From: Sphingomonas psychrotolerans
GTDB lineage: Bacteria; Pseudomonadota; Alphaproteobacteria; Sphingomonadales; Sphingomonadaceae
Direction: 5' to 3'
NCBI RefSeq assembly: GCF_002796605.1
Contig: NZ_CP024923.1
Span: 3,479,501-3,543,500, forward strand
Length of the DNA stretch: 64,000 nt
Every line of letters starts with the position of its first letter. Position 1 is the first letter of the stretch. Shown in pieces: positions 3,873 through 63,591 of this stretch. The translations under genes were made by a program, and so were the position numbers. The notes under the pieces were generated by a model that saw only the letters and a program-made list of their open reading frames with translations, had not been told where the DNA came from and did not search any database.

Positions 3873-6464
3873 ATGATGGCAGACGCTCAGACCGCAACCC
3901 AGGCGCCCAACGTGACGCGCCGCGAGGATTACAACGAACCCGATTGGCGCGTTCCAGAGATCGCGCTCGACCTCGATCTCGACCCCGCTGCGACTCGGGT
4001 GCGCACGACTTTGTGGGTCGAACGGGGCGGCGTGCATGATCGGCCGCTGCGGCTCGACGGCGACGGGCTGACCGCGCTTTCGGTCAAGGTCGACGGTGCC
4101 GAGACCATGGACTGGCACATGGACGGCCCGAACCTCGTGGTGCCGCTTTCCGGGTCGGCGCACACGATCGAGACCGAGGTCGAGATCGCGCCCGAACGCA
4201 ACACCCAGCTGCAGGGGCTTTATGCCTCGAGCGGCATGCTGTGCACCCAGTGCGAGGCCGAGGGCTTCCGCCGCATCACTTTCTTCCCCGACCGGCCCGA
4301 CGTGCTCAGCCGCTACAAGGTCAAGCTGACTGCCGACAAAACGCGCTTCCCGGTGCTGCTGGCGAACGGCGATCCGATCGCGCAGGGCGAACTCGACGGC
4401 GGCAAGCATTGGGCCGAGTGGCACGATCCGTTTCTCAAGCCGAGCTATCTGTTCGCTTTGGTGGCGGGCGATCTCGTCGCCAATCGCGGCACCTTCACGA
4501 CGATGTCGGGGCGCGAAGTGCAGCTCGGCATCTGGGTACGCGCGCCCGATCTCGCCAAGACCGATCACGCGCTCCACGCGCTCAAGCTTTCGATGGCGTG
4601 GGACGAGAAGGTCTATGGCCGCGAGTACGATCTCGACGTGTTCAACATCGTCGCGGTCGACGATTTCAATTTCGGCGCGATGGAGAACAAGGGGCTGAAC
4701 GTTTTCAACAGCCGCTACATCCTCGCCGATCCCGATACCGCGACCGATTATGATTACGACGCGATCGCCGCGGTGGTCGCGCACGAATATTTCCACAATT
4801 GGTCGGGCAATCGCGTCACGTGCCGCGACTGGTTCCAGCTCAGTCTCAAGGAAGGCTTCACGGTCTTTCGCGATCAGAGCTTTTCGGCCGATCAGGGCAG
4901 CGCCGCGGTCAAGAGGATCGAGGACGTGCGCGGGCTGCGCGCCAGTCAGTTCCCCGAGGATGCGGGTCCGCTCGCGCACCCGGTGCGCCCCGACGAATAT
5001 ATCGAGATCTCTAACTTCTACACCGCGACGATCTACAACAAGGGCGCCGAAGTCATCCGGATGATGGCGACGATCCTCGGTCCCGAGAAATTCCGTGCCG
5101 CGACCGATCTCTATTTCGACCGCTTCGACGGCACCGCCGCGACCTGCGAAGATTTCGTCCAGTGCATGGAGCAGGCCGGCGGAGTCGACCTGACCCAGTT
5201 CCGTCGCTGGTACAGCCAGGCGGGCACGCCGCGCGTCTCGGCGACGCTCGCGCAGGAGGGCGGCCGCGCGCGGCTCAGCCTGCGCCAGCTCGTTCCGCCC
5301 ACCCCGGGCCAGCCGGTCAAGGAGCCGATGGTGCTCCCGCTGAAGCTCAAGCTGTTCGGCGGCTTCACCGGCCGGCCGATGTGCGACGAGCAATTGATTC
5401 TGCTCAAGGAAGACGCACAGGAACTGCTGTTCGAAAACCTGTCCGAGACGCCGGTGCTGTCGATCAACCGCGGCTTCTCGGCGCCGATCGTGGTCGAGAC
5501 CAACCGCACCGCGAAAGACCTCGCTTTCCTGTCGGCGCACGATGACGATCCGTTTGCGCGCTACGAGGCGATGCAGCAGCTGATGCTCGATACGCTGGTG
5601 ACCTCAGTCACCAATGGCGGAACCGATCATGCGGCAGTGATCGAGGCGGTACGCAACACGCTGACCGATTCCGCGCTCGATCGCGCCTTCGTCGCCGAGG
5701 CGGTGCTGTTGCCGTCGGACAGCTTCATCGGCGATCAAATGGCGGTGGTCGAGCCCGAGGCGATCTTCCGCGCGCGCGAGGCGCTGCGCGCGGATCTCGG
5801 CAAGGCGCTCGAAGCCGAATGGCGCGCGGCCTATGAGGGAAGCTTGGCCAACCGCTTCGAATATTCTCCCTCGGCAAAGGGCGCGCGGCGGCTCAAGACG
5901 GTATCGCTCGGCTATATCGCCGCGAGCGGAGCGGCCGATGCCGATCAGCTGGCGTTCGACCAGTTCTCGCTGGCCGACAACATGACCGATCGGCAAGGTG
6001 GGCTGACCACGCTGGTCAACGGCGCGTCGCCGCTGCGTGAGGAGGCGCTGGAGGCGTTCTACCAGCGCTATCAGGGTAACGGCCTGGTGCTCGACAAATG
6101 GTTCCAGGCGCAGGCGCTGTCGACCCGCGAAGATACCGCCGAGATGGTCGAGCGGCTGGTTGCGCATCGGGACTTCACGCTCTCGAACCCCAATCGTGCC
6201 AGGTCGCTGATCGGCGCATTCAGCGTCAACCAGCGCGCTTTTCACGACGTGTCGGGCCGCGGCTACCGCTTCGTCGCGGATCAGCTGATCGCGCTCGACA
6301 AGCTCAACCCGCAGACTGCCGCCAAGCTGATCCCCCCGCTCGGCCGCTGGAAGCGATTCGACGAGGCGCGCGCCGCCAAGATGCGCGCCGAACTCGAGCG
6401 AATCGTCGCGACGCCGGGGCTGAGCAAGGACATGTTCGAGCAGGCGTCGAAGTCGCTGGACTGA
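3873..6464 (+). CDS. pepN: aminopeptidase N (M1 family)
   Basis: Predicted 863 aa, the usual size of the bacterial PepN type. The exopeptidase motif GAMEN is at 268-272, and the zinc site is H304-E-Y-F-H308 with the third ligand E327 eighteen residues on (LKEGF). The catalytic domain is followed by a beta domain and a long helical C-terminal region. There is no signal peptide, so it is cytoplasmic. It removes N-terminal residues from peptides, typically as the main general aminopeptidase. Two ATGs are adjacent (3873, 3876), and the first is given. It is transcribed away from three exported M28 peptidases. A short 83-base gap precedes the repair gene downstream. Confidence 0.96.
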   Translation: MMADAQTATQAPNVTRREDYNEPDWRVPEIALDLDLDPAATRVRTTLWVERGGVHDRPLRLDGDGLTALSVKVDGAETMDWHMDGPNLVVPLSGSAHTIETEVEIAPERNTQLQGLYASSGMLCTQCEAEGFRRITFFPDRPDVLSRYKVKLTADKTRFPVLLANGDPIAQGELDGGKHWAEWHDPFLKPSYLFALVAGDLVANRGTFTTMSGREVQLGIWVRAPDLAKTDHALHALKLSMAWDEKVYGREYDLDVFNIVAVDDFNFGAMENKGLNVFNSRYILADPDTATDYDYDAIAAVVAHEYFHNWSGNRVTCRDWFQLSLKEGFTVFRDQSFSADQGSAAVKRIEDVRGLRASQFPEDAGPLAHPVRPDEYIEISNFYTATIYNKGAEVIRMMATILGPEKFRAATDLYFDRFDGTAATCEDFVQCMEQAGGVDLTQFRRWYSQAGTPRVSATLAQEGGRARLSLRQLVPPTPGQPVKEPMVLPLKLKLFGGFTGRPMCDEQLILLKEDAQELLFENLSETPVLSINRGFSAPIVVETNRTAKDLAFLSAHDDDPFARYEAMQQLMLDTLVTSVTNGGTDHAAVIEAVRNTLTDSALDRAFVAEAVLLPSDSFIGDQMAVVEPEAIFRAREALRADLGKALEAEWRAAYEGSLANRFEYSPSAKGARRLKTVSLGYIAASGAADADQLAFDQFSLADNMTDRQGGLTTLVNGASPLREEALEAFYQRYQGNGLVLDKWFQAQALSTREDTAEMVERLVAHRDFTLSNPNRARSLIGAFSVNQRAFHDVSGRGYRFVADQLIALDKLNPQTAAKLIPPLGRWKRFDEARAAKMRAELERIVATPGLSKDMFEQASKSLD

Positions 6465-6547
6465 CCGGCTTTGACGCGTGGTTCCGGGAAGCGCCGCGGT
6501 GCGCGCCGCGGCAGGATGGCATGCCCATTCCGGAACGGAGAACCCGC

Positions 6548-7033
6548 ATGACCCATGTTCGCAAGGCAATTCCGTCGCCGATCGGCGTGCTGACTCTCGT
6601 GGCGCGCGACGATCGCTTGACGGCCATCCTCTGGGAGAATGACGATCCCGGGCGTGTGCGGTTGGGCGCGATGATCGACGACCCCGATCATCCGATCCTG
6701 TGCGAGACCGAACGCCAGCTCGCACTCTATTTCGCGGGCAAGCTCGATGCGTTCACCGTGCCGCTCGATTTCAGCGGCACTGCGTTCCAGAAAAGTGTCT
6801 GGAAAGCGTTGCTGGCGATTCCGTTTGGGGAGACGCGCTCTTATGGCGAGATCGCGCGGCAACTCGGGCGGCCCGGCGCAGCGCGGGCGGTGGGCGCTGC
6901 GAACGGACGCAACCCGATCTCGATCATCGCGCCCTGTCACCGGGTGATCGGCGCGAGCGGCAAGCTCACCGGATTCGCCGGCGGGCTCGAGGCGAAACGA
7001 TATCTGCTCGGGCTGGAAAGCCGGGCGGCCTAG
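6548..7033 (+). CDS. ogt: methylated-DNA--[protein]-cysteine S-methyltransferase
   Basis: Predicted 161 aa, a single-domain Ogt-type protein without the Ada regulatory domain. The active-site motif PCHRVIG places the acceptor cysteine at residue 130. Upstream is the winged-helix segment FQKSVWKALLAIPFGETRSY typical of the DNA-binding half. It transfers alkyl groups from O6-alkylguanine to itself in one irreversible turnover. The ATG at 6548 is chosen because GGAG lies just upstream and the N-terminus then matches family starts; the reading frame is open further upstream inside pepN. It is probably co-transcribed with pepN. Confidence 0.94.
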   Translation: MTHVRKAIPSPIGVLTLVARDDRLTAILWENDDPGRVRLGAMIDDPDHPILCETERQLALYFAGKLDAFTVPLDFSGTAFQKSVWKALLAIPFGETRSYGEIARQLGRPGAARAVGAANGRNPISIIAPCHRVIGASGKLTGFAGGLEAKRYLLGLESRAA

Positions 7034-7217
7034 CCGGCATCGCGTCGCGGCGACATGGCTGGATGGCCCTTCATCGCAAAGTCGGTGCGCGAAGTCCGGC
7101 GGCGGGTGACAGCCTGTGCCGCCTTCGGTAAGCGACGACCAGGTCGGTCGCAAACAAGGCGAAATCCATGCACTCGTCGCGGACTTTGGCATCCGAGAAG
7201 CGGGGCGGGCGCAACTG

Positions 7218-8768
7218 ATGGCGCGCGAAAGCGCCGTTGCGCCGACGCGCACGCTGCGGCTGCCGTCGCTCGCCACCGCCTTGGCCGCGCTTCCTCCCTG
7301 GCTGGTGCTGCTTGCGGCCGCGATCGCGGTGCGTGCGGTCGCCTTCGGCAACCCGGTGGTGCATGTCGACGAGGAGTTCTATTTCCTCACGGCGCAGCGG
7401 ATGCTCGAAGGCGCGCTGCCTTATGTCGACATCTGGGACCGCAAGCCGATCGGGCTGTTCCTGATCTATCTGCCGGCAGCCGGGTTCGGACCTTGGGTCG
7501 GGCTCTGGGTCTATCAATTGATGGCGCTGGCGAGCGTGGTGCTCACCGCGTTGCTGATCCTGCGGCTCGCCGAGCGCGGCGGCTGGGGCGAGGGCGGGCT
7601 CGTCGCGGCATTGCTCTATCTCTTCATGCTCGGCTTCGGCGACGGGCAGAGCGGGCAGGCGCCGATATTCTACAATCTGCTAACCGCCTCGGCGATGGTG
7701 CTCGCCCTGCCCTGTGCCGCGTCGGCGGCGTCCGGCCGACTGCGCAGGGCCCGGGCGATCGGCGCGATGGCGCTGATCGGCGTTGCGCTGCAGGTCAAAT
7801 ATTCGGTGCTGTTCGAGGGGATGTTCCTCGGGCTGTGGCTGCTCTGGCGCGAGCATCGGCTGGGCCGCGCGCCGTGGCGGATCGGGGTGTTCGGCGTCGA
7901 ACTGGTCGTGGCGGCGATGGTACCGACGTTCCTCGCCTGGGGCGTCTATGCCGTGTTCGGCCATGGCTATGCGTGGTTCTATGCCAATCTGGGTTCGATC
8001 CTCGATCGCAACAGCGATCCGCCGCTGGTGCTGCTCGGCGCGTTCCTGAAGGTCGCGCTGATCCTCGCACCCTTGCTGATCGTCGGCGGGCTTTCGCGCC
8101 ATGTTCCGGTCAAGGACGAAAGCGAGCGCCCGATACGTGCGCTCTATTTCGGCTGGCTGATCGCCTCGGTGTTCGGGCTGATCGTGTTCGGCACCTGGTT
8201 CAACCATTATGCGCTGCCGGTGATGTTGCCGGCGTGCCTGTGCTGCGCGGGGTTTCTCGGCCGCAATCCAACCGGGCGGCGCCTCGTCACGCCGCTGCTG
8301 CTGCTCGCGGCGGGGCTGGGCGGTGAGTACACCGTGTGGAGCGCAAAATGGCACCGCGGCGACGCGCGGCAGCTCGAGACCTTGGCCGAGGCGATCGGCC
8401 GAGGGCCCGGCTGCCTATACGTCTATTCGGGCAATTCGAGCCTCTATTCACACACCGGGCGCTGTGCGCTGAGCCCGTGGGTCTATCCCAGCCATCTGTC
8501 GCGCGAGCGCGAGAATGGCGCGATCGGAGTCGATCAGCTTGCCGAGATCGGCCGGATCTTCGCGCGGCGGCCCGAGATCGTCGTGATGGGGCCGGCATTT
8601 TCCGGCGAACGCGCGGAATCGCGCCGGCTGGTGATCGATCGGTTGAAGGCGGGGAATTACACGCTGCGCGGGCACTACCCGCTCGGCAAGACGCTCCTCG
8701 AAATCTATGCCGCGCCGGGCAGCACCGCAGGCGTCGCGCCGCGCCGCGCGGCCAGAAGTCCTTCATAA
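7218..8768 (+). CDS. polytopic membrane glycosyltransferase (PMT/ArnT-like)
   Basis: Predicted 516 aa integral membrane protein with about ten hydrophobic segments. The first periplasmic loop holds an acidic motif, VDEEFYFLTAQRMLEGALPY, followed by DIWDRKPIGLF. This acidic-then-DRKP arrangement is seen in the PMT_2/GT-C superfamily that uses polyprenyl-phosphate sugars. It likely transfers a sugar to a lipid or glycan at the periplasmic face. I prefer the ATG at 7218; an in-frame GTG at 7116 would add 34 residues without membrane character. Its 3' end runs 64 bases into the convergent glycosyltransferase gene. The acceptor and sugar are unknown. Confidence 0.8.
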   Translation: MARESAVAPTRTLRLPSLATALAALPPWLVLLAAAIAVRAVAFGNPVVHVDEEFYFLTAQRMLEGALPYVDIWDRKPIGLFLIYLPAAGFGPWVGLWVYQLMALASVVLTALLILRLAERGGWGEGGLVAALLYLFMLGFGDGQSGQAPIFYNLLTASAMVLALPCAASAASGRLRRARAIGAMALIGVALQVKYSVLFEGMFLGLWLLWREHRLGRAPWRIGVFGVELVVAAMVPTFLAWGVYAVFGHGYAWFYANLGSILDRNSDPPLVLLGAFLKVALILAPLLIVGGLSRHVPVKDESERPIRALYFGWLIASVFGLIVFGTWFNHYALPVMLPACLCCAGFLGRNPTGRRLVTPLLLLAAGLGGEYTVWSAKWHRGDARQLETLAEAIGRGPGCLYVYSGNSSLYSHTGRCALSPWVYPSHLSRERENGAIGVDQLAEIGRIFARRPEIVVMGPAFSGERAESRRLVIDRLKAGNYTLRGHYPLGKTLLEIYAAPGSTAGVAPRRAARSPS

Positions 8769-9904
8769 TAAGCCATCAGCTCGACCGTGTGATCGCGGTC
8801 GTTGCGCACCTTGCCTGCGGCCACGCGCGCAGCGGCGCGCAGGATCGCGGGTTCGCGCGCGAACATCCGGCGGATCGCATCGGCGGCCGACAGTGCGTCG
8901 CGTGCGGCATAGGTCTCGGCGAACAGGGGATCGGCCAGTTCGGCGAACCCACCTTCGTCGGGGCCGATCAGCGGCAGGCCCGAAGCCAGCGCCTCGGATG
9001 CGACCAGCCCGAACGGCTCGGCATCGGAGCCGTGCACCAGCGCGTCGCAGCTCGCCATGATCCGCGACAGCCGGACGCGGTCATATACCGGGCGGAAGAT
9101 CCGGATGTGCGGGCTTCCGGCAATCCGGGTCTCGAGATGGCGGCGCTCCGGGCCGTCGCCGATCAGGATCAGCCCCACCGGCAAATCGGTCGCCGCCGCC
9201 TCGACGGCATCGATCACCAGCGGCCAGCGCTTTTCCTTGTGATGCCGACCGAGCCCGAGCAGCAAATGCCCCTCGGGCGGCAGCCCGCATTGCTCGAGCA
9301 GCGCCACGCGCAGCTTCTCGTCGCGCAGATCGGGCGAGAACCAGCTGCGCTCGATCCCCAGCGGCATCGATGCGTCGACCGTCATGCCGCGGCGGCGGAA
9401 GCGCTTGGCGAGCGCCGGCCCGTTGGTGACGAACGCGTCATAGTGGCTGAGGAAGCGGTTCATGTAGCGCGTGTACCAGGCGAAGGCGCGCTCGACCTGA
9501 ATCGGCGTGGCGATGTTGTCGAGCCAGCGCTGCGGATAGGCGCCCATCTGATCGCCATGCGCGAAAAAGACCTTTAGCGCGTCGCCCTGCCAGTTCGCGA
9601 CTGTCCAGGCGGGGAGCCAGGGCGAGCTGCATTCGACGATGTCGGGCTGGAGCCGGTCGAGCAATTCCCAGACCGGCTCGTCCTTGACGAAGATGCAGTA
9701 ATTGCGGTCGAGCACCAGCGCCGGCGACTTGACCCAGAGGATGCGGCCGCCGCCGGGGCGATCTTCGACTCCGTCTTCGAGCGCCGGGGCGATGACGGTC
9801 AGCTCATGCCCCATATCGGCCATGATGCCGATCTTGCGGTCGATATAGGTGCGCACCCCGCCGCCGGTGGGGGAGTAGAATTCGTTGACGTCGACGATGC
9901 GCAT
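8705..9904 (-). CDS. glycosyltransferase family 4-type
   Basis: Predicted 399 aa cytoplasmic GT-B fold enzyme. The N-terminal half shows DVNEFYSPTGGGVRTYI, a glycine-rich loop typical of GT4 enzymes. The C-terminal half has LLGLGRHHKEKRW and the nucleotide-sugar segment SDAEPFGLVASEALASGLPL, which contains the E-x7-E-like donor motif. It transfers a sugar from a nucleotide-activated donor. The ATG at 9904 is chosen because a perfect AGGAGG lies seven bases upstream. It is the last gene of a three-gene operon with a DUF2141 protein and a membrane protein, opposite two other glycosyltransferase genes, so a surface-glycan role is likely. Confidence 0.88.
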   Translation of the reverse strand: MRIVDVNEFYSPTGGGVRTYIDRKIGIMADMGHELTVIAPALEDGVEDRPGGGRILWVKSPALVLDRNYCIFVKDEPVWELLDRLQPDIVECSSPWLPAWTVANWQGDALKVFFAHGDQMGAYPQRWLDNIATPIQVERAFAWYTRYMNRFLSHYDAFVTNGPALAKRFRRRGMTVDASMPLGIERSWFSPDLRDEKLRVALLEQCGLPPEGHLLLGLGRHHKEKRWPLVIDAVEAAATDLPVGLILIGDGPERRHLETRIAGSPHIRIFRPVYDRVRLSRIMASCDALVHGSDAEPFGLVASEALASGLPLIGPDEGGFAELADPLFAETYAARDALSAADAIRRMFAREPAILRAAARVAAGKVRNDRDHTVELMAYYEGLLAARRGATPAVLPGAA

Positions 9905-9915
9905 TCGCGGCCTCC

Positions 9916-48712: not shown

Positions 48713-48915
48713 TGGCGCTGGTGGAACTCGGCCGCTTCGATCGGCAGGAAGCCTATATCGTCCAGACCCGGCTCGAGAGCGAAGGCATCATGAGCTTCGT
48801 CTTCGATGCAGGCGCGAGCATCGCCGACGGCAGTTGGCTGCTCATCCCGGTGCGGGTGATGGTCGACGACGAGGATGTCGACGTGGCGCGGGGGCTGCTC
48901 GAGCGGCCGGATTAA
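48712..48915 (+). CDS. DUF2007-type small signal-transducing-like protein
   Basis: Predicted 67 aa with the pattern LVELGRFDRQEAYIVQTRLESEGI...VMVDDEDVDVARGLL, typical of the DUF2007 ferredoxin-like fold. The role is unknown. GGAGA lies before the ATG, which overlaps the LysR stop by one base. Its stop overlaps the stop of the convergent GH2 gene. Confidence 0.82.
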   Translation: MALVELGRFDRQEAYIVQTRLESEGIMSFVFDAGASIADGSWLLIPVRVMVDDEDVDVARGLLERPD

Positions 48916-51900
48916 CGACCGGCGACGGGACCGTGAAAATCGGCCTCGACGATCCCGAGCCGCCAGCCCGGCGGCACCGCGTCGGCGCCGGTATCCCCCG
49001 CCTTGCGCGACGTGTCGAGCTCGACCACCTTGCCGAAAGCGTCGCGGTCCTCGACCGGCGCCATCTGGGTAATCCGCAGCACCCGGCCGGTGGCAGGGGC
49101 GAACGCCAGATGGGCATAGCCGAGCTGACGTTCGGTGGCGCCTTCCCACAATATTCGTCCGTCGAGTGTGATGCGCAGCGAATAGCTGCGCGAGCGCCAG
49201 CCGACGAGCTTGAGGTCGATCTCGCTCAGCGTCGCCTGCGTACCGAAATGATATTCGATCCACGCCGATTCGGGCCGGCCATCGCTGGTCCAGCGCGAGA
49301 GCTCGTTGTCGTCGGCGCTGCGCTGCGCCTCGTTAACATTCGAGCCGGCTGCGATCGATGCCGGCATCAGCGTCGTGCGGCTCGGCGTGAACGACGGACC
49401 CGAGGGTGTCGGGCCACGCGTCAGCAGCCCGGGCTGATGATCTTCAGGGAAGTCCGCTGAAAGCCCGCCGGCTGCGGGGCGTACGCGTATCGTCGGGATC
49501 GTCAACAGGGCAGGCTTGAGCCCCGCAGCGGTTGCCGTGACCCGCACGCGGCCGTCCTGCGTTCGGGCGCGCAGCAGCACGCGGTTGACCCCGGCTTCGA
49601 CCGGCAGCTTGCGGGAGAGGACGTAATTGTCTTCTTCGCGCGCGGTGCCGGCATAATATGTGGTTTGGTCGGCGCCGGCGGGCTTGACAGGCTCGGCCGG
49701 CCCGGCGGCGACATCCGACCGTTGCCGGCCCGAGGAGTCTCCCTGCGCGATGCCGCCGCGCCATTCGGCCGGCCCATCGAGCGTGAACTGCACCAGATCA
49801 CCGGCGGTCGGCACTCGCCGTCCTTTCGCGTCGACCACCTCAACATCGACCAGCGCGACGTCGGCGCCGTCCATCACGAACCCACGCGGCGAGACATGCG
49901 GGGTCAGTCGCAGCGCTGTCGCCGGCCCGACGGTTTCGAGGCGATGTTCGGATGTTCGCCCATCGGCGTACGTTGCCACTGCGCGCAGCGTCCCCGGTGC
50001 CCAGGCGACTTGCTTCCAGCCGAACAGAAAGCCGCTGCTCCGCACGCCTTTGCCGAGCGATTTTCCGTTGACGAACAGCTCGACGCTTTCGCCGTTCGAG
50101 ACCACGGTCATGTCCTTGCGCGCACCGGGGGCATAGTTCCAATGGCCGATGATGTGCGTCGCCGGAGTGACGCTGTCGACCCAGTCGCTCCACATCACCT
50201 TGTGCGCGAAGAACCCGGCCTTGGGCAGCCGCATCGCGTCGACTTCGCCCGAGCGGCGGTAATTATTGTCGCCGCGATAATGCGTATTCGAATCCGAGAA
50301 GATGATGTTGACGCCGCCCGAGCTGACTCGCTTCCCCGTGCCCGGCCGCACCCGATAATAGTCCCACCAGCGCTTGACGTCCTCGATCGCATGGCTGTCC
50401 TGGTTGCGGTTATAGTCGGGCGAATCCTTGTGAAACGGCGGAGTCAGCTCGTCCTGATAGAGCCGCGCGCCTTCGTCGCGCGAATATTCCATCGCCCATA
50501 CGGGCTTGGTGCCGCTCTTGTTGATGTAGAGCATCTCGCCGCCGTATTCGGCTTGCCTGCTGTCGAGCATCTCGCGCGATCCGATCGCGCGGCCGCCATG
50601 CGGGTCGAAGCGATCGCGGATTGCCTTCAGTTCGGCCATGTGCGCCTCGCTGATATTCTCGTTGCCGCCTTCGTAGAACAGGATCGACGGATTGTTGCGG
50701 TTATAGACGATCGCCGCCTGCATCGCTTCCTTACGCTGCTCCCAGCGCCGGCCGGTGACGTCGCTCTCGGCGTCGCCCGCCGGCATCGCCTGGATCAGCC
50801 CGGCCCGATCGGCGGATTCCACGTCCTGCTTCGAGGGCGCGATGTGCATCCAGCGCACCAGGTTGCCGCCGCTCTCCACCATCAGGGCATTCGAGAAGTC
50901 GCTCAGCCAGGGCGGGATCGACACGCCCAGCGCGGGCCATTCGTTCGACGTCCGCTGCGCATAGCCATGCATCTGGATCACGCGGCCGTTGAGCGTCACC
51001 ATACCCTCGGCGAACTGCGTCTGGCGGAAGCCGGTGCGGGTATCGACGCTGTCGATCGGCCGACCATTCTCGGTGAGACTAGTGGTCACCGTGTAGAGAT
51101 AGCCATAACCCCAGCTCCAGAAATGGAGCCCCGCCACTCGGTCCGCCACGGCGAGCGTCCGGGTCTCGCCGGGAGCCAGCGTCGCCTCGCCGCCGTCGAG
51201 TCGCGCGACCAGGCGGGCGTTGCGGTCGCGGATCTCGACGCGATAGCCGATCCGCCGCGGCACCGCGCCGGCGTTGCGAACCTCGGTCTCGGCATGGATC
51301 GTCGCGGCGCGACGTGCGAGATCGAAACCGTCCGCCCAGACGTATTGGCCACTGGTGCCCAGCCCGGGCTGGAGCGGCAGGGTCTGATAGACCGGCCCGG
51401 TAAGATGCAGCCGCACGTTGCGAGTGATGCCGCCGTAATTGACGTTGAAATTGTCGTTGTTCCACTGGAAGCCGCTGCCGGTCGCGCGTTCCTTGTATTT
51501 CCAGTCATTGTCGACGCGCACCGCTATCAGATTCGCGCCGGGCTTGAGTGCCGGGCTGATATCCGCTCCAAACGCGCTCACGCCGTTCTCGGACAAGGCA
51601 ACCCACTGGCCGTTGACCCAGATTTCGGCGGCCTGCCGCACCCCCTCGAATTCGAGGAACGCCCGTCCGCTTTCCTGCCGCGCCGGCAAGACGATGCGCT
51701 TGCGATACCAGATGATGCCCGTCGACAGCTTCTTGATGTCGCGGGCGAAGGCTTCCTTCTCGTTGAAGGCGTGGGGCAATGTCACGGCGCGCCATGCGCG
51801 GTCGTCATAGTCGTTCTGCTCGGCGCCCGCTTGTTCGCCGACAGCCATGCGCCAGCCCGGGTTGAGGTTCCACGTGGTGCGCGGGGAAGCCACCGCAGTG

Positions 51901-51980
51901 GACGCGTCATGCGCAATCGCGGGGCTGGCCCCCCCGGGCACTGCCAGCGCGGCCGCAAGCCGGATCAGACCTTCTCTCAA
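48912..51980 (-). CDS. exported glycoside hydrolase family 2 enzyme (beta-galactosidase-like)
   Basis: Predicted 1022 aa. A signal peptide is followed by a galactose-binding-like sandwich at about 35-195, an immunoglobulin-like domain, and a barrel in which E441 (GGNENISEA) is the likely acid/base and E498 (WAMEYSR) the likely nucleophile. Two further beta domains follow, and a C-terminal discoidin-like module from about 880 contains SRWTSDGRPESAWIEYHFG. It should cleave beta-linked galactosides or related sugars. It diverges from a large TonB receptor, as in carbohydrate-uptake loci. The exact substrate is unknown. Confidence 0.9.
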   Translation of the reverse strand: MREGLIRLAAALAVPGGASPAIAHDASTAVASPRTTWNLNPGWRMAVGEQAGAEQNDYDDRAWRAVTLPHAFNEKEAFARDIKKLSTGIIWYRKRIVLPARQESGRAFLEFEGVRQAAEIWVNGQWVALSENGVSAFGADISPALKPGANLIAVRVDNDWKYKERATGSGFQWNNDNFNVNYGGITRNVRLHLTGPVYQTLPLQPGLGTSGQYVWADGFDLARRAATIHAETEVRNAGAVPRRIGYRVEIRDRNARLVARLDGGEATLAPGETRTLAVADRVAGLHFWSWGYGYLYTVTTSLTENGRPIDSVDTRTGFRQTQFAEGMVTLNGRVIQMHGYAQRTSNEWPALGVSIPPWLSDFSNALMVESGGNLVRWMHIAPSKQDVESADRAGLIQAMPAGDAESDVTGRRWEQRKEAMQAAIVYNRNNPSILFYEGGNENISEAHMAELKAIRDRFDPHGGRAIGSREMLDSRQAEYGGEMLYINKSGTKPVWAMEYSRDEGARLYQDELTPPFHKDSPDYNRNQDSHAIEDVKRWWDYYRVRPGTGKRVSSGGVNIIFSDSNTHYRGDNNYRRSGEVDAMRLPKAGFFAHKVMWSDWVDSVTPATHIIGHWNYAPGARKDMTVVSNGESVELFVNGKSLGKGVRSSGFLFGWKQVAWAPGTLRAVATYADGRTSEHRLETVGPATALRLTPHVSPRGFVMDGADVALVDVEVVDAKGRRVPTAGDLVQFTLDGPAEWRGGIAQGDSSGRQRSDVAAGPAEPVKPAGADQTTYYAGTAREEDNYVLSRKLPVEAGVNRVLLRARTQDGRVRVTATAAGLKPALLTIPTIRVRPAAGGLSADFPEDHQPGLLTRGPTPSGPSFTPSRTTLMPASIAAGSNVNEAQRSADDNELSRWTSDGRPESAWIEYHFGTQATLSEIDLKLVGWRSRSYSLRITLDGRILWEGATERQLGYAHLAFAPATGRVLRITQMAPVEDRDAFGKVVELDTSRKAGDTGADAVPPGWRLGIVEADFHGPVAGR

Positions 51981-52413
51981 GGAAACCTCACTCGGGCGTC
52001 ATCCACGATGACGGGCATTCCACCATTTGGCACCAGCTTATGAGATATGGGCTAAAAATGGTCAAGCCATTCCGGCACGCGAGGAATATTGGCCTTACCA
52101 ATGCGCGACGGAGGCGAATCGCTGAGGCCCTCAGCGAGACGGCCGCCACAGACAGATATGCTCAAGCCGCCGGGTTGGCCGCAGCGCAGCGCCTAAGGGC
52201 GAGCATTCTCACGAATCACCTCGTTACCGCTTGGTCTGACAAATGGGTTGCGTGGGTCAAAAAAGCTGATAATTCTATAAGCTGAATAGTTGTCTCATAT
52301 TGTGAGAGAATTGGGAAAGCCCAATCTCTCGGGTGTCCGTCGCGGGGGACAACAGGGAAATCCTGGACCCGCTGCGGGCGAGTGCGTGCGCAACACGGTG
52401 GAGAGGGGAAAAC
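51981..52413. promoter_or_regulatory. divergent control region of the GH2/TonB locus
   Basis: This 433-base gap has no convincing gene and is AT-richer in its second half. At 52088-52102 lies ATTGGCCTTACCAAT, a 15-base palindrome similar to operators of FCD-type GntR regulators. At 52304-52330 an 11-bp hairpin with one bulged A (GAGAGAATTGGG with CCCAATCTCTC) sits in the likely leader of the TonB gene, 83 bases before its start. Promoter hexamers were not resolved. Confidence 0.5.
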
Positions 52414-55400
52414 ATGCATATTGGATCGACGTCGCGCGTCCGGATCGGGGCGACTGCCTCGTGGATGGTATTGGGGCTGCTGCTCGCCTGTGGAAATGAG
52501 GCAGCGGCACAGACCGTGCCCGGGTCTGGCGAGCAGGCTGCACCCGAGGCGGGCGAGCAAACCGCTCCCGAGGTGGACGATGCCAACGCCCAATCCGAGA
52601 CGATCATCGTCGTCGGATCGCGCGCCAGCCAGCAATCGGCGATCGGACGCAAGAAGAACGCCCGCACCGCGACCGACTCGATCGTCGCCGACGACATCGG
52701 CTCCTTCCCTGATCGCAACGTCAACGAAGCGATCTCGCGAATCCCGGGTGTGGCGCTCAGCCGCAATGAGTTCGGCGAGGGCGACAGCGTCGCGGTGCGC
52801 GGCAATGGCCCCGATCTGACCCGCGTCGAGTTGGACGGCATCGGCGTCCAGGCCACCAATTCGCTGGCGATCGACGGCGGCAGCAGCCGCGGCGCCGATC
52901 TGCGCGAACTGCCTGCCGAGCTGATCAAGAGCGTCGACGTGGTCAAGGGCTCGACCGCCGACCAGACCGAGGGGTCGCTCGGCGGTAGCATCTCGATCAA
53001 GACGCGCACCGGGCTCGATTTTAGCAAGCCTTACATCTCGCTCCGCGCAGGCGCGCAGCAGAATTCGCTCGGGCGCGACTGGACTCCCGACTTCAACGGC
53101 GTCGCCGCCACCAAGCTGTTCGGCGACCGGCTCGGCGTGATCGTCAGCGGCAATTATTCGAAGATCCAGAACAACGGTCACGGTTTCGAAACGACGACGA
53201 GCAACAATCGCGGCTATTCGCGCCTGTTCGATTTCGACCAGTCCGCCGAAAAGACCTTCGCATTCAATCCCGCGACCGTGGGTACCGACGCGGCCGACGT
53301 CGCCTTCGCCAACAGCACCGCTCCCGACGGCACCTCGCTGACGCCGCGCGAACTGGTCACGCTCTCGGCCGGTGCCACCAGCAAGGCGCAGTGCCTCCAG
53401 CTCTTCCCGCATCTGGCAACCAGCGCCAGCACGAATGCGCGCAACCAGCGCATTCTCGAGCAGCAGACCTGCCTCAACCAGTGGAATGACTATACGCCGT
53501 CGCTGATCCGCAACTTCATGAACACCCAGACCGACGAACGCTATTCGTTCGACGGGCGCCTCGATTATCGGCTGACCGACAATCTGACGATCTTCGCCAA
53601 GGGCACGATCGCCAACCGCAAGGTGCACGACCAGAATCGTAGCCGCAATCCGGTGACTCTGTTCAACCAGAACCTCAACGGCACCTTCGACATTTCCACC
53701 GCGCCCACCAATCCGCGCACCCGCACCGTCTCGCTCAACGCGCCGGCCGGCTATCATCTGTTCGACCCGGCTTATGGGATCAACAATGTCAGCAGCAACA
53801 CCGTGCTGGGCAATGTGCTCAACGTGATACCGGGCAGCGTCGTGGTCGACGCGGATCACAACGTCACCGGGATGACGCTGACCAACAATTCGGTGAACAT
53901 CGACCAGATCGAGAACCGGATCGACACCAAGACCAAATATGCGCAGGTCGGCGCCGAATATCACGGGGATCGCCTCGACGTCGAAGCGATGGCGGGGCTC
54001 ACCACCGCGGAGACGACTCGCGGCGACATGCGCACCTCGCGCACCTATGCTTATGGCGACGCGACGCTGGCGTTGCAGCCCAACGGGCTGTGGGACATCG
54101 AACTGCCCGCCAATTACGATGAGTCCAACCCCGCGAACTTCGCGCAGGTGCGCCCCGCCGCATGCGTTTCCGGGGGCAGCAACCCGGCTACCTGCACTGG
54201 CCAGAACGCCGTGGCGGCAAGCCCCACCGGGCCGGCGACGCCCGCCTATCTCGTCTCGCAGATGCCGCTGACCACGCCGGGTTTCAGCGTCTCCTATTCG
54301 CCGCGCATCGGCGAATCGACCGAGAAGATCGCCAAGCTCGATCTCACCTATCGCACCGAGGACATGCTGCCGTTCATCACGCGTTTCAAGGTCGGCGCGA
54401 TGTACCGCGACAACGATATCAAGCGCTGGGGCGGCGGCGGCTATACGGCGAGCCCGCAGCGGGGCATCTTCGGGCAGGCAGGCTATGTTCCCGCGGTCGT
54501 CGTGCCGGTCGCGCAGGTCCGCGGCACGCTGCGCGCGTGCGAACCGACGGCGGGGTCATCGGCGCTCGGAGGGCTCTCGTGCAACTACGGCTTCGTGCCC
54601 AGCACCAATCCCTTGAACAACCGTTCGGGCGTCGACACGCTCACCCGGCAGGAACTGATCGACCTCTTCACCAAGACGCTCGAGGACAGCGATTCCGAAT
54701 ATTTCGGCGATGTGCCGAACCGCGGCAATTTGCCGCCGGCGTGGCAAGGCATCCGCACCGACGAGCTGTTCGCCGCGCTCGGCGCGTCGAAGTTCATGAA
54801 CTTCGATTGCATGAAGCAGTGCGTCGGCAGTGACGGCCAGACCTACGATCAGCCGATCACCCGCGCGAACGAGACGATCAAGAACATCTATGGCATGGTC
54901 GATTTCGAGCAGCGTCTGCCGCTCGGGCTGCTGTTCAACGGCAATGTCGGCCTCCGCGGCGTTTTCAGGAGCGTCAAATCGTCCGGCCTGCAGACGATCT
55001 CGACGATCCGGACGACCGGAACCTTCAACCCGGGCGATCCCAACAACGCGGGCGGCATCACCGTCTATACCTATAGCCAGAACACCGCCTTCAAGAGCAG
55101 CACGACCGATTGGCTGCCCAGCGTCAACCTCAACTTCTGGGCCTTCAACGAGAAGGTCGTTCTCCGCCTCTACAGCGCCAAGACGGTCGCGGCGCCGAAC
55201 ATCAACAATCTGATCCCCGGCGGCACCTGCTCGATCGACCAGCGCGTCGACCTCACCGCGGACGATGACGATTATGGCTGCAGCGGCCGCGTCGGCAACC
55301 CGGCGCTCTCGCCGTTCAAGGCGTGGAACTACAATGCCAGCCTCGAATGGTATCCGAACGCAGATACGATGTTCTCGGCAACCTATGGCAAGCTCGACGT

Positions 55401-56109
55401 CAAGGTCGGTAACCCGATCGCAGTTACCGTCCTCGAGCGCCCGTTCGCGGACAGCACCCAGGTCGATCCGATCACAGGCACCGCACTTGCCGATATCGAG
55501 TTCCAGGTTCCCACCTGGGCCAATGGCCCCGGCTACAAGCGTTCCATCTGGGAGTTCTCGGGCAAGACCGCGTTCACCTTCCTGCCGTGGTTCCTCAAAT
55601 ATACTGGCGCGGATGCCAATTTCTCGATCCTCAGCTCTGTGGTGACTTCGGGCCAGCAAGATCCGCTGACCGGCGATGTGATGCTGCCGCCCGACGAGTC
55701 CAAATATTACACCAATGCCTCGCTCTGGTATGATGACGGCAAGCTCAACATCCGCGTCGCTTATCAGAAGCGCAGCTCACGTTTCATGTGCGTGACTCCG
55801 TGCGGGGGCAACTCCACCGACATCAACTATCCCGGCGAGCAGTGGACCAACGTTCGGCTCGTTGCGCCCGGTTACAATCCCGGCGTGGCGCGGTTCGCCG
55901 ACGGCTCGACCTTCATCGACGCCAAAATCTCGTACAACATCACGCGCAACTTCCAGGTCTATGCAGAGGGCCGCAACATGACCCGGCAGGTGCAGACGAT
56001 CTCGACCGGCGAGTATCTGCCGTTCGCCGACGGCACGCCGCGGGTCATGCGGATGAACTATGGCGGTCGCCGCATTCTCGGCGGCGTGCGCATCCAGTTC
56101 GGCAACTGA
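52414..56109 (+). CDS. large TonB-dependent receptor (Xanthomonas/Caulobacter type)
   Basis: Predicted 1231 aa, near the upper end for this class. A signal peptide (ends NEAAAQ) and a Glu/Ala-rich spacer precede ETIIVVGSRASQQSAI. The plug contains SIVADDIGSFPDRNVNEAIS, RIPGVALSRNEFGEGDSVAV and ELIKSVDVVKGSTADQTEGS, the TIGR01782 pattern. The long barrel ends in GGVRIQFGN. It likely imports an oligosaccharide or aromatic ligand, given the divergent GH2 gene. GAGAGGGG lies before the ATG at 52414. A strong terminator follows. Confidence 0.94.
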   Translation: MHIGSTSRVRIGATASWMVLGLLLACGNEAAAQTVPGSGEQAAPEAGEQTAPEVDDANAQSETIIVVGSRASQQSAIGRKKNARTATDSIVADDIGSFPDRNVNEAISRIPGVALSRNEFGEGDSVAVRGNGPDLTRVELDGIGVQATNSLAIDGGSSRGADLRELPAELIKSVDVVKGSTADQTEGSLGGSISIKTRTGLDFSKPYISLRAGAQQNSLGRDWTPDFNGVAATKLFGDRLGVIVSGNYSKIQNNGHGFETTTSNNRGYSRLFDFDQSAEKTFAFNPATVGTDAADVAFANSTAPDGTSLTPRELVTLSAGATSKAQCLQLFPHLATSASTNARNQRILEQQTCLNQWNDYTPSLIRNFMNTQTDERYSFDGRLDYRLTDNLTIFAKGTIANRKVHDQNRSRNPVTLFNQNLNGTFDISTAPTNPRTRTVSLNAPAGYHLFDPAYGINNVSSNTVLGNVLNVIPGSVVVDADHNVTGMTLTNNSVNIDQIENRIDTKTKYAQVGAEYHGDRLDVEAMAGLTTAETTRGDMRTSRTYAYGDATLALQPNGLWDIELPANYDESNPANFAQVRPAACVSGGSNPATCTGQNAVAASPTGPATPAYLVSQMPLTTPGFSVSYSPRIGESTEKIAKLDLTYRTEDMLPFITRFKVGAMYRDNDIKRWGGGGYTASPQRGIFGQAGYVPAVVVPVAQVRGTLRACEPTAGSSALGGLSCNYGFVPSTNPLNNRSGVDTLTRQELIDLFTKTLEDSDSEYFGDVPNRGNLPPAWQGIRTDELFAALGASKFMNFDCMKQCVGSDGQTYDQPITRANETIKNIYGMVDFEQRLPLGLLFNGNVGLRGVFRSVKSSGLQTISTIRTTGTFNPGDPNNAGGITVYTYSQNTAFKSSTTDWLPSVNLNFWAFNEKVVLRLYSAKTVAAPNINNLIPGGTCSIDQRVDLTADDDDYGCSGRVGNPALSPFKAWNYNASLEWYPNADTMFSATYGKLDVKVGNPIAVTVLERPFADSTQVDPITGTALADIEFQVPTWANGPGYKRSIWEFSGKTAFTFLPWFLKYTGADANFSILSSVVTSGQQDPLTGDVMLPPDESKYYTNASLWYDDGKLNIRVAYQKRSSRFMCVTPCGGNSTDINYPGEQWTNVRLVAPGYNPGVARFADGSTFIDAKISYNITRNFQVYAEGRNMTRQVQTISTGEYLPFADGTPRVMRMNYGGRRILGGVRIQFGN

Positions 56110-56115
56110 TCGCAG

Positions 56116-56149
56116 CCGGGGCCGTCTGCGCAGGACGGCCCCGGATTTG
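56116..56149 (+). terminator. terminator after the large TonB receptor gene
   Basis: An 11-bp perfect stem, CCGGGGCCGTC (56116-56126) and GACGGCCCCGG (56134-56144), with a 7-base loop and a short ATTTG tail, starts six bases after the stop codon. It separates the receptor transcript from the downstream coupled pair. Confidence 0.75.
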
Positions 56150-56165: not shown

Positions 56166-56960
56166 ATGAAGATTGCGCAGGGACAGGATGTGGCGGGCAG
56201 GATTGCGCGCGCTGGGCTTGACGAGGGCGCACTCGTCGTCCGCAAACTGCTCGATCGCTCCACGCATGGTGCGGTGGAACTCCCGCGACCGCCGCTCGAT
56301 GAATTGCCGTACCATGCACTGGTGCGTGCGCTGCTCGCGCGGCCCGGGTTCAAGCTCGACTTCAATCGTCTCGAGCCCGATGCCGCGCTCGCGCTGGTTT
56401 CCGATCGGCTGCTCGGCGTCGGCGCCTTCGTCCATGAGCGTGCGCTGCTCGCACAGGACATTGCGGCATTAGCCGATTTAACCAGCGGCCTGGTGAATGC
56501 CCGCGCTTCGGTGTCGATCCGCACCTATTTCGCGCCGGGAGATCTGGTGTGGCACGTCGATCGGGTCAATGAAGCGGTCGCCTTCCGGCTGGTATGGCCG
56601 ATAGGGCGCCCGGCGGGCATGCACGTGACGCCGGCGGACAATATCCACCCCGAGATTTACCGCGCTTATATGCAGCGCGAATATCCGCTGTTGTGTGCGC
56701 TCGACACCCGTGTCCTGCGAACCGGCGTGCCGGTCGAGGCGTTGTGGGCGCATCGCCCGGTCCAGCTCGCGGCGATGGTTTCGGGGCGCTTCCGGTTTGT
56801 GCGCGACCCGGAATCCGAGCGCGAAGTGACGCCGGGCGCCGCCAGTATCCACCGCGTGCAGACGCCGGGGCAGTCGGGGGCCTGGCATCGTTCTTCCTGG
56901 GCCAATCGGCACGTGCCCGGACTGCAGATCGTGATCACTGCCGCCGCGGATCCGTGCTGA
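56166..56960 (+). CDS. unknown protein with HxD motif
   Basis: Predicted 264 aa, no signal peptide or membrane helix. A beta-rich C-terminal half carries SIRTYFAPGDLVWHVDRVNE, an H-x-D motif as used by iron-dependent dioxygenases and DUF1826-like proteins, followed by VAFRLVWPIGRPAGMHV. A distant second His for a metal site could be in the GAWHRSSWANRH segment. I do not recognise the family with confidence. It is coupled by TGATG to the degenerate aldo/keto-reductase gene, so the two likely work together. Confidence 0.75.
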   Translation: MKIAQGQDVAGRIARAGLDEGALVVRKLLDRSTHGAVELPRPPLDELPYHALVRALLARPGFKLDFNRLEPDAALALVSDRLLGVGAFVHERALLAQDIAALADLTSGLVNARASVSIRTYFAPGDLVWHVDRVNEAVAFRLVWPIGRPAGMHVTPADNIHPEIYRAYMQREYPLLCALDTRVLRTGVPVEALWAHRPVQLAAMVSGRFRFVRDPESEREVTPGAASIHRVQTPGQSGAWHRSSWANRHVPGLQIVITAAADPC

Positions 56961-57880
56961 TGCGCTTTCGCAAGCTCGGGCGCGCCGGCCTCGATCTGTC
57001 GGAACTGGCCATCGGCGTGTCGGCGGGGGACCCGGGCGACACCGCCGCCGCCATTGCTTCGGCTTTCGACCTCGGCGTCAACACCGTGACCATCTGCGCG
57101 GGCGACCGGGAAGCTGCCGGACTCCTCGCTGGAACGGGCGGGATCCGCGCCGTGCATGTCTGCGCCACGGCGACGTCGCGCGTTCCTTTCGACTTGCCGT
57201 CGCCGCATGTGCCGGCGTGGCAGGCCTATCCCGGCAGCCATTTGCGTGCCGAGGCCGAAGCACTGCTGGGCAGGCTCGGGATCGAGCGGCTGGCGCTGGT
57301 GCAATTGCCCGCCTGGTGCCCCGAATGGCTGCACGAGGGCGACTGGCTCGAGACGCTCGTTCGGCTCCGGGACGAAGGGAAGATCGCCGGCTTCGGGGTT
57401 TCGCTGTTCGATCATGACCTGGACGCGGCGCTGGAGGCCGTCGCCAGCGGCCTGATCGACGCGGTGCAGCTGATGTACAATATCTTCGATCAGGGAGCCG
57501 CCGCGGCGTTGCTGCCCCTGTGCGAGAAGCACAATGTCGGGGTCGTCGTACGATCCCCGCTTTATTATGGTGCGATCACGCCGGCTTTCGCTCGGACACC
57601 CGCCTTCCCGGATGGCGATTGGCGCAGCGGCTATTTCTTCGACGAACATCGCTGCGAGACGGCGGAGCGAGTGCGGCAGCTGGAGGGGCTGGTGGCCCCG
57701 CCCGATCGCTCGGTGACCGACATGGCGCTACGCTTCTGCCTGTCGCACCCTGCCGTCTCGACGGTGGCGGTGGGCATGCACCAGCGCATGCATCTCGAGG
57801 CCAATCTGCGCGCGATCGAGCAGGGACCGCTCGAGGCCGACCGGCATGCGGCGCTGGCGCAGCATAAATGGCTGTGTTGA
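56960..57880 (+). CDS. aldo/keto reductase-fold protein lacking the usual catalytic tetrad
   Basis: Predicted 306 aa. The barrel is recognisable from FRKLGRAGLDLSELAIGV at the start, GLIDAVQLMYNIFDQGAAAALLP and the coenzyme-side VTDMALRFCLSHPAVSTVAVG at the end. The four usual active-site positions are changed: Asp in DTA is T44, Tyr is D49, Lys is about A71, and His is P117 (LVQLPAW). It may therefore be a non-reductase relative or a binding protein. It starts inside the stop of the HxD protein gene. Confidence 0.82.
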   Translation: MRFRKLGRAGLDLSELAIGVSAGDPGDTAAAIASAFDLGVNTVTICAGDREAAGLLAGTGGIRAVHVCATATSRVPFDLPSPHVPAWQAYPGSHLRAEAEALLGRLGIERLALVQLPAWCPEWLHEGDWLETLVRLRDEGKIAGFGVSLFDHDLDAALEAVASGLIDAVQLMYNIFDQGAAAALLPLCEKHNVGVVVRSPLYYGAITPAFARTPAFPDGDWRSGYFFDEHRCETAERVRQLEGLVAPPDRSVTDMALRFCLSHPAVSTVAVGMHQRMHLEANLRAIEQGPLEADRHAALAQHKWLC

Positions 57881-61085: not shown

Positions 61086-62631
61086 TCGCGACTATCAATC
61101 CACGGCCTGCCTCACGCGCCCGCCTCCGCAAGGAACGCCGCGCAGCGCTCACCGATCATGATGCTCGGGGCATTGGTGTTGCCGCCGATCAGCCGCGGCA
61201 TCACCGAGGCGTCCGCAATGTAGAGACCGTCGACTCCGCGAACCTTGAGCCGCGGATCGACGACGGCATCCGCATCCGATCCCATCCGTGCCGTGCCGAC
61301 GGGGTGATAGACCGTGTCGGCGCGCGCGCGGATCAGGCGCTCGAGCGCGGCATCGTTGGCGAGATCGATCGGATAACGGTCGCGGCCTGCATAGCCGGCA
61401 AGCGGCGGAGTCCCGAGGATGCGGTACATCGCGCGAACCCCGGCTTTGAGCACCGCCATGTCGCGCGGGTCCGACAGAAAGTTCGGATCGATCAGCGGCG
61501 GCGAATGCACATCGGGCGACTGGAGCCGGACGGTGCCCCGGCTCTCGGGCCGAAGCACGCAGGTGTGGCAGCTATAGCCGTGCCCCTTGAGCTTGGTACG
61601 GCCATGATCCTCGACGATCGCGATCAGAAAGTGGAGCTGGACGTCGGGGCGCGCGCCGGCGAGTTCGGTGCGCAGGAACCCGCCTGCCTCGGCATAAGGC
61701 GAGGTCATCCCGCCGCGGCGGGTGAATAGCCATTGCACGAGCGCCCCGAGCGATTTGAGCGTCCCCATCGGCGAACGGCCGAGGAAGAAGCTGCCCTCGG
61801 TCTCGAACGCCGCGACATAGTCGATATGGTCCTGGAGGTCCGAGCCGACCGCGGGGCGATCGACCTGCACCGAAAGGCCCATCTCGGCGAGGTGCGCGCC
61901 AGGGCCGATTCCCGACAGCATCAGCAATTGCGGAGTCTGGAAAGCGCCGGCGGCGAGCACGACGGCGCGGCGCGCCCGGATCTCGCGCGACTGCCCGCCT
62001 TGCCGGTACGCGACGCCCCAGGCGCGGCCTTTCTCGAACAGGATGCGCTCGACCATTGCGTCGCAGACGATCTCCAGATTGTCGCGCCGCTTCGCGTCCG
62101 ACAGATAGGCGCGCGACGCCGTCCAGCGCTCGCCGCCTTTCTGGGTCACCTGATAGAGGCCGACGCCGTCCTGCCGTGCGCCATTGAAATCGCGGTTGAC
62201 CGGGATCTGCAGCCGCGACGCCGCCTCGATGAACGCGCGCGATCCCGGATGGGCGAAATCCTGGTCGCTGACCCAGAGCGGACCGTCGTCGCCGTGGAAT
62301 TCGTCCGAACCCCGGACATTATGCTCCGAGCGGCGGAACCACGGCAGCACGTCGTCCCAGCCCCAGCCGGTGCAGCCGAGATCTCGCCACTCGTCATAAT
62401 CCTGACGGTGGCCGCGGATGTAGAGCATCGCGTTGATCGCGCTCGATCCGCCCAGACCCTTGCCGCGCGGCTGGTAGCCGCGGCGGCCGTTCAGGCCGGC
62501 TTGCGGCACCGTCTCGAAGCGCCAGTTGGTCTTGTCGGTCTGGAAGGGCATCATGCCGGGCATGATCGTCTTGAGGCTGGTGTTGCGCCCGCCTGCCTCG
62601 AGGACCGCGACTGTGTATTTGCCGCCTTCGC

Positions 62632-63591
<960 letters not shown>

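What the first reader, a model, noticed from the sequence alone, without database searches (positions are those of the whole stretch)
56166..57880. Coupled pair: unknown HxD protein with an aldo/keto reductase that has lost its catalytic residues
The AKR-like barrel keeps its overall pattern but changes Asp, Tyr, Lys and His of the active site (T44, D49, about A71, P117). It is translated directly with a protein bearing a WHVDR motif like iron oxygenases. The pair could be a new enzyme system in which the AKR fold binds substrate or cofactor for its partner.
Basis: partly seen in the sequence, partly recalled or inferred. Interest (0 to 1): 0.7.

Follow-up and report, generated by a model that had tools for sequence, protein, structure and literature searches.

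The report
Receptor-linked oxygenase and dead reductase pair
In some Sphingomonas bacteria a gene for an unstudied iron-oxygenase-like protein is directly followed, in every copy examined, by a gene for a former reductase that has lost its catalytic residues, close to a gene for an outer-membrane uptake receptor, which suggests a small and so far unnamed uptake-linked module.

Summary
Observation confirmed. Gene A (56166-56960) and gene B (56960-57880) overlap by one base.

A and B are adjacent in 17 of 17 loci; an orthologous TonB-dependent receptor lies upstream in 16 of 17; a DUF6491 gene lies between in 10 of these 16, a GH2 glycosidase near in 7.

Best reading: a cytoplasmic oxygenase serving the receptor or its cargo, with an AKR-derived pseudoenzyme as obligate partner. 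Functional precedent: CciT-CciO (PMC12004947). Substrate, cofactor binding and a complex are not shown.

The parts
56166..56960 (+). Gene A: 264-aa protein with Fe(II)/2OG-dioxygenase fold, no Pfam family at cut-off
56550..56564 (+). WHVDR motif (A129-133) with H130 and D132, proposed metal ligands
   Evidence: W129, H130, D132 and R133 in 139 of 139 rows
56886..56888 (+). H241 of A, proposed distal metal ligand
   Evidence: 139 of 139; lies before the last strand, near the place of PHD2 H374 if the end ranges are read without gaps (PHD2 numbering recalled); inference
56850..56852 (+). H229 of A, alternative distal ligand
   Evidence: 139 of 139
56960..57880 (+). Gene B: 306-aa aldo/keto-reductase barrel without catalytic tetrad
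57089..57091 (+). B T44, place of the catalytic Asp
57104..57106 (+). B D49, place of the catalytic Tyr
   Evidence: MAFFT puts a gap here, ungapped spacing puts D49
57167..57169 (+). B T70, place of the catalytic Lys (R in 117 of 122 rows)
57308..57310 (+). B P117, place of the catalytic His (H in 114 of 122 rows)
52333..56109 (+). TonB-dependent receptor, TonB-Xanth-Caul type; ORF start uncertain
   Evidence: TIGR01782 385.7 bits, cut-off 310; orthologue before A in 16 of 17 loci
56116..56144 (+). Strong hairpin (12-bp stem in the predicted fold) between receptor stop and gene A; possible attenuator
   Evidence: -31.2 kcal/mol, z -3.17; no clear T tract after it in the window copy
48912..51980 (-). 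Divergent GH2 glycosidase, beta-galactosidase-like
   Evidence: GalA model 281.7 bits, below its cut-off of 900; GH2 domains over Pfam cut-off; orthologue at 70-88% in 6 of 13 loci, one of them cut by the locus end

Best explanation
A and B are the cytoplasmic half of an uptake-linked module: TonB-dependent receptor - (DUF6491 protein) - A - B, often with a GH2 glycosidase nearby. A is most likely a working Fe(II)/2-oxoglutarate-type oxygenase of an undescribed family. B is an AKR-derived pseudoenzyme: it can no longer do AKR hydride chemistry, but probably keeps the barrel and the dinucleotide and ligand pockets, and is retained as A's obligate partner, either presenting the substrate or gating A by ligand or NAD(P)(H) binding. 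Together they oxidise what the receptor brings in, or support the receptor itself, as CciO does for CciT. Shown here: pairing, fold of each model, residue conservation, tetrad loss along a tree, purifying selection, linkage to the receptor. Inferred: oxygenase activity of A (0.7), no reductase activity in B (0.85), a physical A-B complex (0.55), joint function with the receptor (0.8), carbohydrate-like cargo (0.4).
For: A-B adjacent in 17 of 17 loci: window, 13 loci, and L056, L057, L059. Orthologous receptor (60-87% identity over the main match) upstream in 16 of 17. Of 151 genus genomes 8 gave A and 13 the receptor at E 1e-100; the 8 lie within the 13. B without A was not seen: in 60 relatives the best other hit of B scores 64 bits against 694 for itself, and that hit (L003) has D-Y-K-H. 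A: 2OG-dioxygenase fold; 139 of 139 keep H130, D132, H229, H241. B: 21 of 21 outgroup AKRs and Marinicella's paired B have D-Y-K-H; 0 of 28 Sphingomonas-type rows in the tree do, and two rows outside the main clade keep parts. Of 33 AKR-conserved columns from residue 103 on, 26 are kept; of 23 before it, 5 (counted). Omega 0.22-0.26 for B and 0.16-0.30 for A on five pairs. Precedent: CciT strictly requires cytoplasmic dioxygenase CciO (PMC12004947, abstract and passages).
Against: No assay, complex model or expression data. The receptor stands without A/B in 6 loci of 5 genomes, so it does not need them. Hairpins follow the receptor stop in the 6 of 16 loci that I chose to fold, three of them (L018, L020, L059) with a T tract, so receptor and A-B may be separate transcripts. 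Foldseek's scores for A are modest (TM 0.25-0.47 in the listed rows, E 5.7e-06 at best). The usual 2OG-holding Arg at the start of the last strand is not evident in A (Q254 is invariant; R248 is E in 2 and R242 is C in 5 of 139), so A may use another cosubstrate or have lost activity (the rule is recalled). The Marinicella pair has no receptor beside it among the ORFs tested. The GH2 orthologue is near in only 7 of 16 receptor loci.
Confidence: 0.5

Rival explanations
1. A and B are two enzymes of a catabolic pathway for the imported compound. B still catalyses something, but not AKR chemistry (an isomerase, hydratase or epimerase using E44, R70 and H117).
For: E44, R70 and H117 occur together in 92 of 122 rows, as if a new active site had formed; purifying selection on B; glycosidase genes near some copies.
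Against: In the window and its sister P0122 even R70 and H117 are lost (T-T-P, 2 of 122), yet omega for window B against L015 B is 0.245, so that residue set cannot be essential everywhere.
Confidence: 0.2
2. A post-translationally modifies a protein or peptide (the receptor, the DUF6491 protein or an unseen peptide), with B as substrate-recognition subunit. The pair descends from peptide-tailoring enzymes.
For: In Marinicella the pair with an intact AKR converges on genes for a YcaO protein, an aKG-HExxH peptide hydroxylase, a repeat protein with eight RYRPD units and a methyltransferase. In Caulobacter the protein levels of receptor and dioxygenase fall in each other's deletion strain without change of mRNA (PMC12004943, passage).
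Against: One peptide-cluster locus only; 8 of 9 Sphingomonas-type genomes tested gave no HExxH hydroxylase match. No modified residue is known.
Confidence: 0.15
3. B is a decaying gene carried along with A (no function).
For: Tetrad lost along the tree.
Against: A B match directly follows A in 17 of 17 loci and omega is 0.22-0.26 on five pairs.
Confidence: 0.04
4. B is a free-standing NAD(H)-binding regulator like KidO, only co-located with A.
For: KidO is an NADH-binding oxidoreductase homologue that binds FtsZ and acts on the CtrA pathway (PMC7083601, passages); weak model hit of 23.9 bits.
Against: The KidO cut-off is 244 bits; B goes with A and the receptor.
Confidence: 0.08

Closest known systems
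CciT-CciO (also PiuA-PiuC, Fiu-YbiX): TonB receptor plus cytoplasmic 2OG/Fe(II) dioxygenase
   Same: Receptor gene next to a dioxygenase-fold gene, co-conserved across genomes (PMC12004947 and PMC12004943, abstracts and passages)
   Different: A matches no described family at cut-off; the receptor is of TIGR01782 type, whereas CciT is related to Fiu and PiuA; a second gene, the AKR-like B, was present in all 17 loci. Iron regulation of the window module was not looked for
AKR superfamily, nearest solved structure AKR11C1 (1ynp)
   Different: Asp, Tyr, Lys and His of the tetrad all replaced in the window
KidO, NADH-binding oxidoreductase homologue of Caulobacter
   Same: AKR-like protein with a regulatory role (PMC7083601, passages), weak sequence hit
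   Different: Well below the family cut-off; B sits with A and a receptor
DUF1826
   Same: Weak hit over the H-x-D region, E 0.053; profile comparison probability 30-37%
   Different: Below the Pfam cut-off (13.8 against 22 bits); no AKR partner was looked for
Carbohydrate-scavenging TonB receptor loci of Xanthomonas and Caulobacter
   Same: TonB-Xanth-Caul receptor, with a glycosidase nearby in some genomes
   Different: A sugar transporter and regulator beside the window module were not searched for; the paper PMC1790865 was seen only in search listings

Membership tests
Aldo/keto reductase superfamily | (beta/alpha)8 AKR fold and sequence family | tested here: met
Aldo/keto reductase superfamily | Catalytic tetrad Asp-Tyr-Lys-His | tested here: not met
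   T44-D49-T70-P117; full tetrad in 1 of 122 rows
Aldo/keto reductase superfamily | NAD(P)H binding | not testable with these tools
   S148, Q170, N174, G204, R222 and G272 are kept in the window and most rows, which is only suggestive
Fe(II)/2OG oxygenase superfamily (gene A) | Double-stranded beta-helix fold | tested here: met
Fe(II)/2OG oxygenase superfamily (gene A) | H-x-D...H metal triad | tested here: met
   H130, D132 and two candidate distal His in 139 of 139; which His is the ligand is inferred, metal binding untested
Fe(II)/2OG oxygenase superfamily (gene A) | Basic residue that holds 2OG | tested here: inconclusive
   R119, R141 and R148 invariant, but no invariant Arg at the usual place after the distal His (usual place recalled)
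CciO/PiuC/YbiX | Same dioxygenase sequence family | tested here: inconclusive
   No 2OG-oxygenase Pfam or NCBIfam model matched A at E 1 or better; CciO itself was not compared
CciO/PiuC/YbiX | Gene next to a TonB receptor | tested here: met
   16 of 17 loci, with a DUF6491 gene between in 10 of them
DUF1826 | Score over Pfam cut-off (22 bits) | tested here: not met
   13.8 bits; hhalign probability 30-37%
KidO | Score over NCBIfam cut-off (244 bits) | tested here: not met
   23.9 bits
TonB-Xanth-Caul receptor (TIGR01782) | Score over cut-off (310 bits) | tested here: met
   385.7 bits

The most novel reading that the evidence does not exclude
A two-subunit oxygenase in which a dead aldo/keto reductase, recruited from a peptide-tailoring pathway where it was still active, senses NAD(P)(H) or a ligand and thereby gates an iron oxygenase that hydroxylates its own TonB receptor or the receptor's cargo. 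This would be a redox-gated, post-translational control of outer-membrane uptake.
Probability: 0.12. Interest if true: 0.85.

Novelty: new variant of a known kind. Interest (0 to 1): 0.55.

Why it matters
Why a cytoplasmic dioxygenase should be wedded to an outer-membrane receptor is an open question; the authors of the CciT-CciO work leave the molecular connection to future studies (PMC12004947, passage). This module looks like a second such pairing, with an oxygenase that matches no described family, a different receptor type and an added pseudoenzyme, so it allows the question to be asked independently. The loss of the AKR tetrad along the tree, with an intact paired form still present in Marinicella, also gives a graded series from enzyme to pseudoenzyme in which the partner gene stays the same.

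Tried and rejected
DUF1826 as the family of A: below cut-off in Pfam, profile comparison weak (one of its 21 DUF1826 rows, L089, looks mistranslated); left as a lead. Anti-phage defence: no PADLOC hit at E 0.01 for A, B or the receptor. A link to peptide (RiPP) genes in the window: the RYRPD motif of Marinicella does not occur there as a repeat, and the HExxH/YcaO cluster of the own genome lies more than 2 Mb away. A PDB sequence search with A gave one hit at E 1.9. A search for A in 61 genomes around Marinicella gave only Marinicella itself and one 39-residue match at E 5.8e-4. Two AKR relatives closest to Marinicella B were checked for a neighbouring A; none was found (L086, L087). A first tree was discarded because five outgroup rows had been translated from the wrong strand; one search replaces it. 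G498B (long branch) was left out, which used 26 of the 120 listed B proteins (the window's own included) plus L019B, L020B and Marinicella.

Limits. The protein searches scored only the 7999 best candidates and listed 120 hits. The genome searches scored only some candidates per genome (17, 6, 4), so absences are soft and receptor counts are lower bounds. No description of this module was seen in the listings of the paper search (open-licence PMC; where many papers matched, 10-20 were listed). PMC12636437 was seen as outline and abstract only, as background.

Likewise, that L054, L055, L058, L060 and L061 repeat loci is judged from equal contig lengths; they were not counted again.

Full report
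What is there. Gene A (56166-56960) and gene B (56960-57880) are intact and overlap by one base (TGATG). The TonB-dependent receptor gene ends 56 bases upstream at 56109 and an ORF that looks like glnB by eye (no family search was run on it) starts at 58063. Neither A nor B starts with an obvious export signal by inspection, so both are read as cytoplasmic (inference).

Gene B. The barrel is an AKR. In 122 rows position 44 is E (98), T (18) or D (2); position 70 is R (117), T (2), K (2) or H (1); position 117 is H (114), P (6), D (1) or Y (1); Tyr at the remaining site occurs in 3. In a 50-row tree the 21 outgroup AKRs are all D-Y-K-H. Marinicella B, also D-Y-K-H, is sister to the Sphingomonas-type clade (support 98/83), which is one clade (100/99). 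Outside its main 26-row clade (97/91) lie P0160 (E-Y-H-H) and P0221 (D-Y-K-Y), which keep parts of the tetrad; their own grouping is weak (84/22). Most of the remaining rows are E-x-R-H. In the window's clade of eight the first site is T (6), L (1) or A (1), and only the window and its sister P0122 have also lost Arg and His. MAFFT leaves a gap at the Tyr site; the ungapped spacing gives D49. Stepwise loss is an inference from this tree, in which several branches are weak and Marinicella B and some outgroups are long or differ in composition. Of 56 columns conserved in at least 80% of outgroup AKRs, 31 are kept in B: 26 of 33 from residue 103 on, 5 of 23 before (split counted by hand). So the part that bears D, Y and K has decayed while the rest is held. 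Nei-Gojobori omega on five pairs of loci is 0.22-0.26 for B, 0.16-0.30 for A and 0.03-0.32 for the receptor (the receptor was a C-terminal piece in four pairs, and dS exceeds 1 in two of the fifteen comparisons).

Neighbourhood. The one genome-contig scan gave 13 loci: 11 labelled Sphingomonas, one Proteobacteria MAG, and Marinicella sediminis. B lies directly after A in 13 of 13 and the orthologous receptor before A in 12 of 13, Marinicella being the exception. With the window and three further genomes (L056, L057, L059) this makes 17 of 17 for the pair and 16 of 17 for the receptor. A is rare: 8 of 151 genus genomes, 2 of 398 phylum genomes, both in the genus, and 1 of 61 in a first sample of relatives; each count includes the own genome. 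The receptor is found in 13 of 151 at E 1e-100 or better; in five of these genomes, six loci, it stands without A and B. A DUF6491 gene sits between receptor and A in 10 of the 16 receptor loci and was not found there in the window, L010, L011, L014, L015 and L016; two of the ten were tested against Pfam and score 51.8 and 56.8 bits, cut-off 27.5. A GH2 glycosidase orthologue at 70-88% identity is in the flanks of 7 of 16 (window, L015, L016, L018, L019, L020, L021), in several orientations; L020's copy is cut by the locus end. None of the six receptor-only loci has that orthologue; one (L053) has a distant GH2 at 26-34%, as has L017 at 27-35%. Flank lengths differ between loci, so these counts are lower bounds. 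Ten other flanking ORFs were tested: GH3 in L012, GH88 in L017, an aromatic amino acid lyase, a GntR-UTRA regulator and a sodium/proton exchanger in L010, a TonB receptor in L013, DUF305 in L018, and three without a family.

Marinicella. Its A-B pair follows a methyltransferase gene and converges on a second row of genes: YcaO (82.7 bits, cut-off 25.7), an aKG-HExxH peptide hydroxylase (TIGR04267, 79.6 bits, cut-off 40), a 236-aa protein with eight RYRPD repeats that looks like a multi-core peptide precursor, and a methyltransferase. This one locus suggests that the pair once tailored peptides with an active AKR. It is a single case; P0248 is an identical protein and not independent.

Transcription. 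A stable hairpin follows the receptor stop in the window (-31.2 kcal/mol, z -3.17). I folded five more of the 16 loci, chosen by eye; all have a hairpin in that stretch (z -1.85 to -3.21), and L018, L020 and L059 carry a T tract after it. A and B overlap and are probably translationally coupled, but the receptor may be on its own transcript. This weakens any claim of one operon.

Explanation. TonB receptor and cytoplasmic dioxygenase partnerships are known: CciT function strictly requires CciO, and the protein level of each falls when the other is deleted (PMC12004947 and PMC12004943, abstracts and passages). The present module works, I think, in a similar way, but with an oxygenase that matches no described family and with a pseudoenzyme as third member. 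Steps shown: pairing, fold of the models, conservation, tetrad loss, selection, linkage. Steps inferred: oxygenase activity, B as ligand- or cofactor-binding partner, the nature of the cargo. No paper describing the module was seen in the searches listed under Tried and rejected, which cover only open-licence PMC papers.

Verdict. A real and well conserved module with two unstudied proteins, ordinary in its parts but unusual in its combination. Interest 0.55; new variant of a known kind.

Noticed in passing
L022:13895-14605 (-), Marinicella sediminis: Protein with eight MIRYRPD-type repeat units beside an aKG-HExxH peptide hydroxylase, YcaO and methyltransferase genes: looks like a multi-core RiPP precursor.
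   Followed up: partly
L120 (G000:C1:694000-713900): The window's own genome holds a separate cluster with YcaO and three HExxH hydroxylase matches; a neighbouring ORF looks TfuA-like and another radical-SAM-like by eye.
   Followed up: partly
window 56116-56144: Strong hairpin just after the TonB receptor stop; hairpins also in the five relatives folded, three with T tracts.
   Followed up: partly
L012, L013, L017-L021, L056, L057, L059, between receptor and gene A: DUF6491 gene between receptor and A in 10 of 16 loci, not found there in the window and five others.
   Followed up: yes
L010 (Sphingomonas sp. 7/4-4), 6177-9912: The receptor gene is split between two reading frames; in G076 the receptor match contains a TGA.
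   Followed up: no
L010 1022-5952: Aromatic amino acid lyase and GntR-UTRA regulator, histidine-utilisation-like, beside the module in this lineage.
   Followed up: no
window 61112-62728 (-): GMC-type oxidoreductase, choline-dehydrogenase-like but under the model cut-offs.
   Followed up: no
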